DNA of 64,000 nucleotides from Gracilariopsis chorda (lineage: Eukaryota > Rhodophyta > Florideophyceae > Gracilariales > Gracilariaceae). Shown here piece after piece: positions 13,992 through 25,686 of this stretch. Under the pieces are notes generated by a model. It was not told where the DNA came from and searched no databases. It saw nothing but the letters and a program-made list of their open reading frames with translations. The stretch covers positions 186,001 through 250,000 of the forward strand of contig NBIV01000046.1 in the NCBI GenBank assembly GCA_003194525.1. Reading direction: 5' to 3'. A program made the position numbers and the translations under genes. Numbering within the stretch: the first letter of the stretch is position 1; each line of letters begins with the position of its first letter.

Positions 13992-14815
13992 TGTGGTGCA
14001 ATGCCCCAAAGGGGAAAAACACCGAAAGACGTTCGGGATCTTCCTCTCACGAGGTGAACCCAGTTGGGTAGAGCCCTCCCAGAGGTGTCACGGCGAAGCC
14101 GGTTTGTAAGACCAGGGACACCTGTCACGACTCGCGCAGGGAGGTGAAGGCGAAGAATCGGTATCCGCTTGAGCGGGGTGTGATCCTCAGCAGAGGTATG
14201 TTTCCACGTAAGTGGGGAAGTGTGAGCGAATGCGCACACGAGGGCCGCGGATAGCGGGAGGTGCTACCCTAAAAAGGGGAAAAGGAAGGGCGAAGAGGAG
14301 GAAGAGAGGACGATGTGAGTCGCGAGAGCGACGAACAGATACGGCGATGCCGGTAACAATATCCCTATACAGGGCGAAACACCAATGCAATTGGAACAAT
14401 TATACTCCCAGTGATGGGTCCCTTTAGATGTGCAAGGGGGTTAGATGTCCCGTGGTTCACGGCGTTTCCCTCCAAGGAGGAGTAGAGTACGCGCGCAAGC
14501 GGCAACAACTAGAGCCAATTCCCCAGGTTGGGGTCCCTTGTTGGGGAAGGTTTACTGGTGCGACGGCAGTGCGCCGTCGCACTAAGTACTAGCTTCCCAG
14601 AAATGGGTGTGAAAATAATAAATAATATTAACTAAAATACTCCACATTTCGTGGCAACATCCACTACTGTGGCCAACCGCCAGTTGACCCAAAACCGTGT
14701 CCCACGTGTCCATATCCACCATAGTGGGGCGTAGTTCATATACACACTACACAACCGATAATATCGGGAAAGCGTTCAAGTACCAAGAATCCCTCCCTGA
14801 GGGCGTTGCACTTCA
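13992..14815 (-). repeat. Gypsy LTR, 3' LTR in element sense
   Basis: It is 824 bp with TG/CA ends, and in element sense reads TGAAGTGC...GCACCACA. It differs from the other LTR at 11 positions (about 1.3%), no indels. It contains many short perfect stem-loops, for example CCTC-TCAC-GAGG at 14043-14054, CCGC-TTGA-GCGG at 14165-14176 and CCAC-GTAA-GTGG at 14204-14215. Confidence 0.95.
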
Positions 14816-14827
14816 TATCCCCCCCCT
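14816..14827 (-). promoter_or_regulatory. Polypurine tract of the gypsy element
   Basis: On the minus strand AAGGGGGGGATA lies directly upstream of the 3' LTR start TGAAG. This is the expected position and composition for the plus-strand DNA primer in reverse transcription. Confidence 0.8.
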
Positions 14828-14872
14828 TAAGACGGGAAAACGACCGCGGACGCGGACGATTCCCAGACAAAA
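14828..14872. other. Leader of the antisense gene between PPT and ATG
   Basis: A short GC-rich segment. No TATA-like box is evident, so the antisense promoter, if real, would be within the LTR. Confidence 0.3.
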
Positions 14873-16387
14873 ATGGGTGATAAAAGCGCGTGCTCTGTCT
14901 CCGGTTCTCCGGTAAATCACTCTGCACCAGAGTCATCAAGCACACAAACGACAACAACAGCCACCCTCCAAAAGGGAAAAATGAACGACGACAACAACAT
15001 CAACAACCACAGCCAACCTCCGAGACTTCTCGGGCGATACACCACCGGTTTCCGGTTAGGTCCCCTGCCTCAGGGCGATCGACATCCAGTACAACCGGGG
15101 AATATGGCTGCTGCAGCCGACCATCCCTTCGCACTACCACCTTCGGTGGTGTCCTCCGGAACCACTCCGGTGTCCAATTGGCCAACCAACAACACCCTGG
15201 TGGGGCTCAACCCGATGAATCGGAATCACGCGTCGCGCCTGCGCCTTGCCCCGTGGTTTCACCCGGTCGCTGTCCTCAATGAGGGATTGGTCACCGCTTA
15301 TGCGGATGGCTCAGACACCCTTCCGGGGGATCTGCCCAGAGCAGTCACCACGTCGTGGGATTGGCGTCACCGGATTGCGATTCCGCGTCACCACCTCCGA
15401 AGAAATTCGGGCGAGACCGTCGCTGCGGCGCAGACCGAGTTGACGCGGATGGCGTACCAATGGCAGAGCCGGGCTCCATTCGATGTACCGGTCCCACCGG
15501 AGTTTGGCTTTGACGTTAGCTACTTCCGCACTCGCGGGGAGATTGGGTACGGCGAGAAACTGTTCCGCCTCGAGACCCTCGCTTGGAGGAATTTCCCCGC
15601 AGCGCGGCAAGAAGCCCTTTGCTGGGAGCGACCGATTATTCGGGCGGAGTTCAGGTACCTTCCCCGGCAATACCGGTCCAACTTTCTCCAAAACTTCATC
15701 CGCTACGAGCGGCGTTGGCGATCCCGATTCGGGTATTTTATCCCGTATCAGAACGTGGAGATAGAGCGGATTGCGCCGCCTCACCGACTAGGTCGGTATG
15801 CAGCACTCCCTGAGTGGTGGGGCTTCCATGAAGCCTGCCGGGGGTGCTACATAGAACTCCCGCCGGTACTTACGTACCTCGGTTCGCTGCTCATGCAGGA
15901 TCCTCGGTCGGGGTTGTGGTCCGTAGTGGTTACGGAGTGGGCGGCCCGCACTGCGGCTTATATCTTCAACGAGGCGTACGACCAGTATCGTCTCTGGTTC
16001 CTTCAACCGCGTGTGTGGGCAGCGATCCGAAACCTGGATCTTCGCATCCCCCTTGGGGGCCAGGCCAACAATGAAGTGGTCCTCCAATTACTTGGGTACA
16101 TCGACAGCGTTAGCTGGAGTGAGGTCCCGCTGGAGCAAAGCGGTCGTCTGGATGGCGGTAGCGGTAACACCGGTGGTCCGGGACTCGGTAGAAACACCGC
16201 CCTTGCGGGGGATTTTATCTACTTCGACCCCTGGGAGTTCCGGGAAATTTCCTCCGAGGAGGCGCGCGAGCTTCGCGATACGCCCCGGCATGTGCCGGAA
16301 GACCACCCGGTGGGGTACGTCGATTCTGACGACTACTACCGCGCATACGGCGGGGATGACCCAATGGTCGATAACGAACCGGAATAA
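14873..16387 (+). CDS. Antisense ORF of the gypsy element, 504 residues, unknown function
   Basis: It starts at an ATG 58 bp inside the element from its 3' LTR and reads against Gag/Pol, ending at a TAA at 16385-16387. The N-terminal 60 residues are Ser/Thr/Asn-rich. The rest is rich in Trp, Tyr, Arg and Pro and looks like a globular protein (for example FPAARQEALCWERPIIRAEF and LPEWWGFHEACRGCY). I recognise no domain, signal peptide or membrane segment. The sense strand here has no comparable frame, so this is not a shadow of pol. Transcription would have to start in or near the 3' LTR, antisense to the element. Antisense accessory genes are known from some plant LTR elements (for example Grande) and deltaretroviruses; homology to those is not implied. 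Confidence 0.7.
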   Translation: MGDKSACSVSGSPVNHSAPESSSTQTTTTATLQKGKMNDDNNINNHSQPPRLLGRYTTGFRLGPLPQGDRHPVQPGNMAAAADHPFALPPSVVSSGTTPVSNWPTNNTLVGLNPMNRNHASRLRLAPWFHPVAVLNEGLVTAYADGSDTLPGDLPRAVTTSWDWRHRIAIPRHHLRRNSGETVAAAQTELTRMAYQWQSRAPFDVPVPPEFGFDVSYFRTRGEIGYGEKLFRLETLAWRNFPAARQEALCWERPIIRAEFRYLPRQYRSNFLQNFIRYERRWRSRFGYFIPYQNVEIERIAPPHRLGRYAALPEWWGFHEACRGCYIELPPVLTYLGSLLMQDPRSGLWSVVVTEWAARTAAYIFNEAYDQYRLWFLQPRVWAAIRNLDLRIPLGGQANNEVVLQLLGYIDSVSWSEVPLEQSGRLDGGSGNTGGPGLGRNTALAGDFIYFDPWEFREISSEEARELRDTPRHVPEDHPVGYVDSDDYYRAYGGDDPMVDNEPE

Positions 16388-16396
16388 CCCGGGGAG

Positions 16397-24756: not shown

Positions 24757-24838
24757 GAGAAAATACCGTTACGGCGGGAAACGATCACGGAACTTCCGGT
24801 GAATAAAAACAAACCTCGTAAGAGGGAAAACCAAAAAC

Positions 24839-24859
24839 CGATTCTAGGTCGGGAGACCA
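24839..24859 (-). promoter_or_regulatory. tRNA primer-binding site of the gypsy element
   Basis: On the plus strand the 21 bases look like a tRNA 3' end: CGATT (last part of the T-loop), CTAGG (T-stem), TCGGGAG (acceptor), A, CCA. The complement starts 3 nt inside the 5' LTR, as for a minus-strand strong-stop primer site. The tRNA identity is not assigned; its 5' acceptor strand would be CTCCCGA. Confidence 0.8.
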
Positions 24860-24862
24860 CTT

Positions 24863-25686
24863 TGTGGTGCAATGCCCCAAACGGGAAAAACACCGAAAGA
24901 CGTTCGGGATCTTCCTCTCACGAGGTGAACCCAGTTGGGTAGAGCCCTCCCAGAGGTGTCACGGCGAAGCCGGTTTGTAAGACCAGGGACACCTGTCGCG
25001 ACTCGCGCAGGGAGGTGAAGGCGAAGAATCGGTATCCGCGTGAGCGGGGTGTGATCCTCAGTAGAGGTATGTTTGCACGTAAGTGGGGAAGTGTGAGCGA
25101 ATGCGCACACGAGGGCCGCGGAAAGCGGGAGGTGCTACCCTAAAAAGGGGAAAAGGAAGGGCAAAGAGGAGGAAGAGAGGACGATGTGAGTCGGGAGAGC
25201 GACGAACAGATACGGCGATGCCGGTAACAATATCCCTATACAGGGCGAAACACCAATGCAATTGGAACAATTATACTCCCAGTGATGGGTCCCTTTAGAT
25301 GTGCAAGGGGGTTAGATGTCCCGTGGTTCACGGCGTTTCCCTCCAAGGAGGAGTAGAGTACGCGCGCAACCGGCAACAACTAGAGCCAATTCCCCAGGTT
25401 GGGGTCCCTTGTTGGGGAAGGTTTACTGGTGCGACGGCAGTGCGCCGTCGCACTAAGTACTAGCTTCCCAGAAATGGGTGTGAAAATAATAAATAATATT
25501 AACTAAAATACTCCACATTTCGTGGCAACATCCACTACTGTGGCCATCCGCCAATTGACCCAAAACCGTGTCCCACGTGTCCATATCCACCATAGTGGGG
25601 CGTAGTTCATATACACACTACACAACCGATAATATCGGGAAAGCGTTCAAGTACCAAGAATCCCTCCCTGAGGGCGTTGCACTTCA
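24863..25686 (-). repeat. Gypsy LTR, 5' LTR in element sense
   Basis: It is 824 bp and pairs with 13992-14815. Several of the 11 differences break a stem that is perfect in the other copy (the CCCC/GGGG and CCAC/GTGG stems, and the GTCGC/GCGAC stem near 25189-25202). At least one goes the other way: CGCG-ACT-CGCG is perfect only here. Confidence 0.95.

What the first reader, a model, noticed from the sequence alone, without database searches (positions are those of the whole stretch)
13992..25686. A retrotransposon written in miniature hairpins: CCNN-(3-5 nt)-N'N'GG stem-loops throughout a gypsy element
Seen directly: in the LTR at 13992-14815 I counted 18 perfect four-bp stems that begin CC and end GG with a 3-5-nt loop (for example CCCC-AAA-GGGG at 14004-14014, CCTC-CCA-GAGG at 14075-14085, CCTC-AGCA-GAGG at 14185-14196). 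With equal base frequencies fewer than one is expected in 824 bp. Further stems (CGGC-GAA-GCCG, an eight-bp GCGACGGC arm pair near 14560-14580) add to this. The pattern continues inside Gag, RT, integrase and the antisense gene: CCGC-TTGAA-GCGG near 20938, CCTG-CATGG-CAGG near 20957, CCTG-TCTGA-CAGG near 20994, CCGC-ATAA-GCGG near 22657. I did not notice this density in flanking DNA. It could be an RNA fold used for packaging, stability or evasion of silencing, a repeated protein-binding site, or the trace of a polymerase that repairs quasi-palindromes by template switching.
Basis: partly seen in the sequence, partly recalled or inferred. Interest (0 to 1): 0.9.

Follow-up and report, generated by a model that had tools for sequence, protein, structure and literature searches.

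The report
Retrotransposon packed with selected mini-hairpins
A red-seaweed retrotransposon and its close relatives carry hundreds of tiny, precisely bounded hairpins along their whole length, and their sequence variation suggests selection keeps them, which makes them look like a repeated handle that some protein reads.

Summary
The element (13992-25686; gag-pol on the minus strand; TSD AATCG; LTRs 813/824 identical) holds 220 CCNN-(3-5)-N'N'GG stems against 18.7 from dinucleotide shuffles; flanks are at chance. Each of seven ORFs beats all 200 synonymous-codon shuffles. Eighteen other gypsy loci of the genome (RT 36-45% identical) lack the excess; related families B, D, F and a 69%-identical relative from another assembly have it.

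Anatomy: 4-5 bp, loop 3-4, outer pairs CC/GG, mostly unpaired neighbours (11 of 205 paired vs 48.9), never closer than 4 nt. Among 29 other copies, variants shared by two or more copies are depleted in stems and first flanks but not loops; singletons are not reduced in stems. G.U pairs are hardly used on either strand.

Best reading: a selected hairpin handle that must pair strictly, so probably needed in both gRNA and cDNA (or in DNA alone), read by an element-encoded nucleic-acid-binding protein, perhaps Gag. Template-switch mutation is disfavoured; silencing evasion stays possible. Host: Gracilariopsis chorda or near it.

The parts
13992..14815 (-). 3' LTR of the element (gag-pol runs on the minus strand), 824 bp; 22 CC..GG hairpins (20 non-nested)
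   Evidence: second copy at 24863-25686; 813/824 identical, ends TG..CA; stems listed
24863..25686 (-). 5' LTR, nearly the same hairpin set
13987..13991 (.). target-site duplication AATCG, left copy
25687..25691 (.). target-site duplication AATCG, right copy
22582..24768 (-). Gag ORF, 728 codons, one CCHC zinc knuckle at residue 622; 47 CC hairpins
   Evidence: 27 homologues found, incl. four Agarophyton chilense proteins at 42-50%; knuckle
21317..22630 (-). next pol ORF between Gag and RT (protease-like place; no Pfam match), 20 CC hairpins
20457..21446 (-). reverse transcriptase ORF, 15 CC hairpins
   Evidence: PF00078 E 3e-37
19831..20535 (-). RNase H ORF, 11 CC hairpins
   Evidence: PF17917, PF17919
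19039..19830 (-). integrase ORF, 6 CC hairpins
   Evidence: PF17921, PF00665
16852..19038 (-). pol tail with chromodomain, 46 CC hairpins
   Evidence: PF00385 E 2.5e-08
14831..16387 (+). antisense ORF, 518 codons here, 609-residue open copies elsewhere; no Pfam match; 29 CC hairpins
14004..14014 (.). example hairpin CCCC-AAA-GGGG (not intact in the other LTR)
20937..20949 (.). example hairpin in RT, CCGCT-TGA-AGCGG on the + strand; the homologous B sequence has a compensated C-G to T-A pair
13992..25686 (.). whole hairpin array: 201 non-overlapping CC..GG hairpins of 4-5 bp with loops of 3-4
   Evidence: classes 4bp/4: 88, 5bp/3: 60, 4bp/3: 40, 5bp/4: 13

Best explanation
The element carries a genome-wide array of about 200 short hairpins that appear to be kept by purifying selection while it is active. 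Each is an 11-14 nt unit: two fixed outer pairs (CC/GG in families A, D and F), two or three free but strictly Watson-Crick inner pairs, a free loop of 3-4 nt, and neighbours that do not pair. Shown here: excess, geometry, restriction to one clade among the families sampled, depletion of shared variants in stems and first flanks but not in loops, conservation between families with the same closing pairs, hardly any G.U pairs. Inferred: because the outer pairs and the boundaries are specified, the hairpins are read by a protein as repeated binding handles; because G.U pairs are hardly used although they would fold in RNA, the handle must work in both complementary strands, most simply genomic RNA and the minus-strand cDNA made inside the particle (or in DNA only). 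The likeliest reader is an element-encoded nucleic-acid-binding protein, with Gag (one CCHC knuckle) first and the antisense ORF product second, for dispersed packaging or condensation of the genome.
For: Excess beyond dinucleotide and codon shuffles. Outer-pair code: CC..GG 195 vs 14.0 expected, the mirror form GG..CC 17 vs 11.6. Flank pairing avoided: 11 of 205 vs 48.9 expected; in B 0 of 21-24 in four of five loci and 1 of 23 in the fifth, D 5 of 54 vs 12.3 (L094). No gap of 0-3 nt between hairpins (0 vs 14.5, never below 3 in 2000 placements). Variants shared by two or more of 29 copies: outer stem 9/208, inner stem 15/242, first flank 2/104, loop 20/184, outside 361/2951; pooled coding stems p=4e-6, LTR stems 1/296 vs 41/1021 p=5e-4. 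Singletons, which largely arise after insertion, are not lower in stems. Between families with the same code stem pairs are kept above sham pairs. G.U on either strand close to chance. The same strand asymmetry (T at -1 of the strand antisense to gag-pol, against A at +1) in A 99:32 (p=4e-9), D 24:8, L100 9:1, and the same trend in the F and B loci. CCHC knuckle in A, B (L108), L102 and 18 of the 27 listed Gag homologues.
Against: No binding or particle data. Known packaging-signal hairpins such as that of MS2 are recognised in loop and bulge; here loops are free. A versus B hairpins are mostly not at the same sites: 8 of 58 intact, stem pairs unchanged 0.50 vs 0.53 for sham pairs, which by itself looks like turnover without conservation. 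Compensation is weak: in A vs L094 2 of 11 double changes stay paired against 141 of 391 sham, and no A vs D hairpin is both intact and compensated. The closing code of B (TC, CT, CC) differs only modestly from A on the homologous stretch (Fisher p=0.035), and in L102 there is hardly a closing code, so 'family-tuned recognition' is weakly supported. Flank avoidance is weak or absent in L098 (3 vs 4.1) and L100 (3 vs 3.6), and first flanks are not depleted of shared variants in the LTRs. The flank asymmetry points to one strand while the G.U result points to both or to DNA.
Confidence: 0.42

Rival explanations
1. Silencing evasion: genome-wide local structure in sense and antisense transcripts (and in both strands of any siRNA) hides the element from small-RNA targeting or dsRNA formation, a retrotransposon version of genome-scale ordered RNA structure.
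For: Structure throughout LTR, genes and antisense gene on both strands; a both-strand need would forbid G.U; stems stay at 4-5 bp; an antisense gene is present; densest in the LTR (24 per kb). Fragment MFED 9.9% and 8.8% lies in the range reported for structured viruses (PMC3950689, passages read).
Against: Pure folding stability does not ask for CC..GG rather than GG..CC (195 vs 17), for unpaired neighbours or for a 4-nt minimum gap. CC hairpins are not more evenly spaced than random (CV 0.83 vs 0.76). Other gypsy families are numerous in the same genome without it.
Confidence: 0.25
2. DNA-only or antisense-strand reading: the hairpins act in single-stranded minus-strand cDNA (or another single-stranded form of the strand antisense to gag-pol) and are bound by RT, integrase or Gag there; the genomic RNA copy is irrelevant.
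For: Strict Watson-Crick pairing; flank asymmetry T at -1 on that strand, in the same direction in LTR, gag-pol and antisense-ORF stretches; G.T on that strand slightly less avoided than on the sense strand (A.C in sense 151 vs 136.1 in A and 68 vs 49.4 in D); 5 of the 6 shared stem mismatches are G.T on that strand (small numbers).
Against: No strand difference in loops or folding energy; nothing else shows that this strand is special.
Confidence: 0.18
3. Mutational origin: an error-prone step of reverse transcription (template switching in quasi-palindromes) writes perfect short palindromes, without function.
For: Strict complementarity, and turnover of sites between A and B at about the background rate, are what such a process predicts; shared variants missing from stems could reflect repeated correction. 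Six of 15 rare hairpins belong to the diverged subgroup L026/L034/L036 (one of them also in L048) and come with 3-10 clustered differences.
Against: Correction should often copy the changed arm; 0 shared compensated changes were seen, against 6 shared mismatches. It explains neither the length cap, the outer CC/GG, the unpaired and conserved first flank (2/104), nor the absence in other gypsy families. Of the nine singleton rare hairpins, eight differ at only 1-2 sites; the ninth (L036, 8 differences) lies in the diverged patch of that subgroup.
Confidence: 0.08
4. Artefact of base composition or coding.
For: The element is richer in G+C (0.56) than the flanks (0.47-0.48).
Against: Dinucleotide and synonymous-codon shuffles do not reproduce it; same-genome gypsy controls (34-51% GC) are at chance.
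Confidence: 0.01

Closest known systems
Ty3/gypsy chromoviruses (LTR retrotransposons with an integrase chromodomain)
   Same: LTRs with TG..CA ends, 5-bp TSD, Gag with CCHC, RT-RNase H-integrase order and chromodomain
   Different: Genome-wide hairpin array; extra antisense ORF between pol and the 3' LTR
[quoted passage not shown]
   Same: Structure along the whole genome beyond shuffles, present in some lineages and absent in related ones (PMC3950689, passages read); influenza B shows it in both strands (PMC3765861, abstract read)
   Different: Here one repeated unit of fixed size with specified outer pairs and unpaired neighbours, in a DNA-integrated retroelement, with hardly any G.U pairs
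Dispersed packaging signals (MS2 and others; also hepatitis B virus pregenomic RNA)
   Same: Many stem-loops sharing a recognition feature, spread over the genome (PMC6281560, passages read)
   Different: In MS2 the motif lies in loop and bulge; here loops are free and the base of the stem is specified; binding not shown
Antisense genes of retroviruses (HBZ-like)
   Same: An ORF on the opposite strand next to the 3' LTR (start of the abstract of PMC10186651 seen in the listing)
   Different: No sequence relation tested or seen; function unknown

Membership tests
Ty3/gypsy chromovirus | RT-RNase H before integrase in pol, with chromodomain | tested here: met
Ty3/gypsy chromovirus | Paired LTRs, TG..CA, short TSD | tested here: met
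Ty3/gypsy chromovirus | Gag with CCHC zinc knuckle | tested here: met
   (residue 622)
GORS | Mean MFED of 300-base fragments above 3% | tested here: met
   9.9% sense, 8.8% antisense, right flank 2.3%, other gypsy (4 loci) -2.1%, L102 11.9% (12 shuffles per fragment); threshold from PMC3950689
GORS | Found in the genome of an RNA virus, linked to persistence | tested here: not met
   It is an integrated retrotransposon; persistence not testable
GORS | Ordinary RNA pairing including G.U (recalled, from no call) | tested here: not met
Dispersed packaging signals | Many stem-loops with a shared recognition feature | tested here: met
Dispersed packaging signals | Recognition feature in loop or bulge, as in MS2 | tested here: not met
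   loops as variable as outside (20/184 vs 361/2951), no loop consensus
Dispersed packaging signals | Binding by the capsid protein | not testable with these tools
   needs binding assay
Quasi-palindrome template-switch scars | Compensated or clustered changes completing palindromes | tested here: inconclusive
   0 shared compensated changes among 26 copies; 8 of 15 rare hairpins have 1-2 differences, but 7 of 15, in the diverged subgroup, have 3-10

The most novel reading that the evidence does not exclude
A clade of red-algal retrotransposons has written a second, non-protein code over its entire genome, genes and LTRs alike: a hairpin alphabet with a fixed base, free loop and forbidden flank pairing that must be readable in both the RNA and its cDNA copy, and whose base-pair signature drifts with the element-encoded reader.
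Probability: 0.3. Interest if true: 0.93.

Novelty: new variant of a known kind. Interest (0 to 1): 0.86.

Why it matters
A genome-wide, apparently selected hairpin code in an LTR retrotransposon was not found in the searches made here (open-access papers only). It offers about 200 natural replicates of one short motif per element and very many copies per genome, so the debate on whether dispersed stem-loops guide genome packaging, or instead hide genomes from defence, becomes testable by simple binding and small-RNA experiments. It also shows how strongly a secondary code can constrain protein genes.

Tried and rejected
Strand by wobble pairs: near-hairpins with one G.T or one A.C mismatch are about equally common in the window copy (28 vs 14.4 and 36 vs 16.2); with bases shared by most copies both are near chance. 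Strand by loops and energy: no difference. 21-nt periodicity: seen against a null without minimum gap (z 4.0) but not significant when a 4-nt minimum gap is built into the null (40 of 400 runs reach it); rejected. Structure of the antisense ORF: AlphaFold mean pLDDT 31.6, useless, so no fold search was made. Relatives in IMG/VR: none found. First version of the polymorphism test chose hairpins by their frequency and was biased; it was replaced, which defines hairpins in the window copy alone and counts variation in the other copies. L095 and L097 lie reversed relative to L094; the row for L097 must be read with the two counts swapped. Third-codon-position subset alone is underpowered (inner stem 2/68 vs 98/908, p=0.04; outer stem 4/70, p=0.22). 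LTR first flanks are not depleted (1/36 and 2/33 vs 23/497 and 18/524). In one search the antisense-ORF region gave no countable columns and the gag stretch (stems 3/58 vs 6/228) was too small to test.
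Full report
What is there. The window lies in a 91.3-Mb, 1081-contig eukaryotic genome. Protein P0002, named by its source as Gracilariopsis chorda BWQ96_03215, matches it at 100% over residues 1-491, so the genome is that red alga or one very near it. 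The feature is a complete-looking Ty3/gypsy chromovirus at 13992-25686: LTRs 813/824 identical, TG..CA ends, TSD AATCG; RT, RNase H, integrase and a chromodomain by Pfam on the minus strand, Gag by homology; an antisense ORF on the plus strand (14831-16387) without Pfam match but with 4 homologues and dozens of open 609-residue copies in the genome. Copies are numerous: 1882 candidates for the LTR (40 scored) and 4789 for RT (122 scored, 86-100% identical).

The count. CCNN-(3-5)-N'N'GG stems: LTR 22 vs 0.95, element 220 vs 18.7, left flank 10 vs 8.2, right flank 18 vs 18.6. Stems of 4 bp 220 vs 17.7, of 5 bp 81 vs 4.6, of 6 bp 1 vs 1.0. Synonymous-codon shuffles are exceeded in all seven ORFs. 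One hairpin motif, CCCCAAAGGGG, occurs 752+721 times in the genome against 13+6 for the reversed pattern; these counts probably reflect mostly element copy number.

Anatomy. Classes 4bp/4 88, 5bp/3 60, 4bp/3 40, 5bp/4 13. Outer pairs CC..GG 195 vs 14.0 expected; GG..CC 17 vs 11.6; GC 8 vs 5.1; CG 35 vs 11.5. The neighbouring bases avoid pairing: 11 of 205 vs 48.9 expected from their own frequencies. Gaps of 0-3 nt between hairpins: 0 vs 14.5; gaps of 4-12 nt 51 vs 36.5 and of 13-21 nt 16 vs 31.5. Loops have no consensus. Density per kb: LTR 24, chromodomain tail 20, gag/PR 18, antisense ORF 17, IN-RT 12.5. Span-20 folding is 32% (plus) and 36% (minus) beyond shuffles; flanks are -9 and -11% (left) and about -1.5% (right).

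Distribution. Of 20 RNase H loci chosen to represent different gypsy families, 16 (RT 38-45% identical to the window) have 8 CC stems in total vs 13.4 expected; 4 (RT 66-80%) show the excess. Of 20 further loci chosen to enrich for the sister family, 18 show it and the two distant ones do not. These sister loci largely belong to one family, B (clusters at 93% DNA identity), so their counts are not independent: TC..GA 39 vs 5.3, CT..AG 25 vs 3.1 and CC..GG 25 vs 3.9 over four loci. Family D (about 65% DNA identity to A in the antisense ORF) has CC 50 vs 3.3 (L094); family F has CC 17 vs 1.4 and 10 vs 1.2. Outside this genome, of seven RT relatives in contigs filed as prokaryote MAGs, L102 (RT 69%, gag 35%; presumably a eukaryotic contaminant) shows an excess, 4-bp 51 vs 26.3 and 5-bp 30 vs 6.9, with little closing code; the six with RT 35-44% do not show it clearly (the nearest is L106, 4-bp 37 vs 26.5).

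Selection. With hairpins defined in the window copy and variation counted in the other 29 copies (19005-22900), variants present in at least two copies occur at 9/208 outer stem, 15/242 inner stem, 2/104 first flank, 20/184 loop, 12/104 second flank and 361/2951 outside positions; singletons, largely post-insertion, are not lower in stems (0.22, 0.20 vs 0.15) but are lower in first flanks (0.087). Without the three most diverged copies the same direction holds with smaller numbers (4/208, 8/242, 1/104 vs 188/2951; inner stem p=0.07). Pooled stems: coding p=4e-6; LTR 1/296 vs 41/1021, p=5e-4. First flanks are not depleted in the LTRs. These p-values treat sites as independent.

Deeper divergence. 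A vs B (73% DNA in RT): 8 of 58 A hairpins intact (3 compensated) and 12 of 53 B hairpins intact (4 compensated); stem pairs unchanged 0.50 vs 0.53 for sham pairs; of double changes 12 of 22 remain paired vs 145 of 388 sham. So most sites have turned over and only a weak compensation signal is left. In the antisense ORF, among families with the CC code, stem pairs are kept above sham (D-F 0.70-0.83 vs 0.53-0.60; A-D 0.54-0.69 vs 0.45-0.47; A-L098 0.61 vs 0.47). Intact hairpins: A-L098 9 of 18 (3 compensated), A-L099 6 of 19 (1), A-D 5-7 of 17-23 (0 compensated). The pairs of sequences are not independent.

Which strand. In the window copy one-mismatch stems with G.U in sense (28 vs 14.4) and in antisense (36 vs 16.2) are about equally common, as expected of decay by transitions. 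Using bases shared by at least 80% of copies, the coding stretch has 66 perfect hairpins (3.5 expected) but 6 with one sense G.U (3.4) and 9 with one antisense G.U (3.7). The six shared stem mismatches among 26 copies are 5 antisense and 1 sense G.U. Without regard to closing pairs, sense G.T is below chance in A, D and B (106 vs 119.8; 39 vs 50.4; 14 vs 21.4; 15 vs 19.4) and slightly above in L102 (52 vs 43.4), while perfect stems are 2.6- to 4-fold in excess. Strict pairing argues against selection on single-strand RNA folding alone. On the other hand the flanks are asymmetric: T at -1 against A at +1 on the plus strand of the window, 99:32, in the same direction in all five regions of the element, though weak in the antisense ORF (8:6) and IN-RT (14:10); since the antisense ORF and gag-pol are read in opposite directions, coding direction does not easily explain it.

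Reading. A repeated unit with a specified base, free loop, unpaired neighbours, minimum spacing and a depletion of shared variants looks like a protein-binding handle. Strict pairing suggests it must work in both complementary strands or in DNA. Gag, with one CCHC knuckle found in A, B (L108), L102 and 18 of 27 listed Gag homologues, is the natural candidate; the antisense-ORF product is the other element-specific one. Neither is shown. Silencing evasion would explain strict pairing on both strands but not the closing code or the flanks.

Papers. PMC6281560 and PMC3950689: passages found by term search. PMC3765861: abstract and outline. Others seen only as search listings.

Noticed in passing
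window 4556-6085 (-) within 1001-7000: Plavaka transposase match (E 4e-19) in a stretch with strong GC skew of about +0.42 to +0.56, unlike the rest of the window.
   Followed up: partly
window 14831-16387 (+): Antisense ORF of the element with homologues at 37-64% identity and open 609-residue copies in the genome; no known domain; the open frame here is shorter.
   Followed up: partly
genome contigs C573, C883, C819, C1001 and C509, C755: RNase H matches spaced by about 5,680 or 6,349 bp, which looks like head-to-tail arrays of other gypsy elements.
   Followed up: no
L102 (JALZUP010000409.1): A contig filed under a Robiginitomaculum MAG carries gag and RT of a gypsy element of this clade: probably eukaryotic contamination.
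   Followed up: partly
L026, L034, L036 around window 19100-19770: In this patch these copies differ at many more sites and carry hairpins of their own, as if exchanged with another subfamily.
   Followed up: no
window 8604-9044: Two-copy tandem repeat of 223 bp next to copia-like coding remnants (copia reading recalled; no Pfam match).
   Followed up: no
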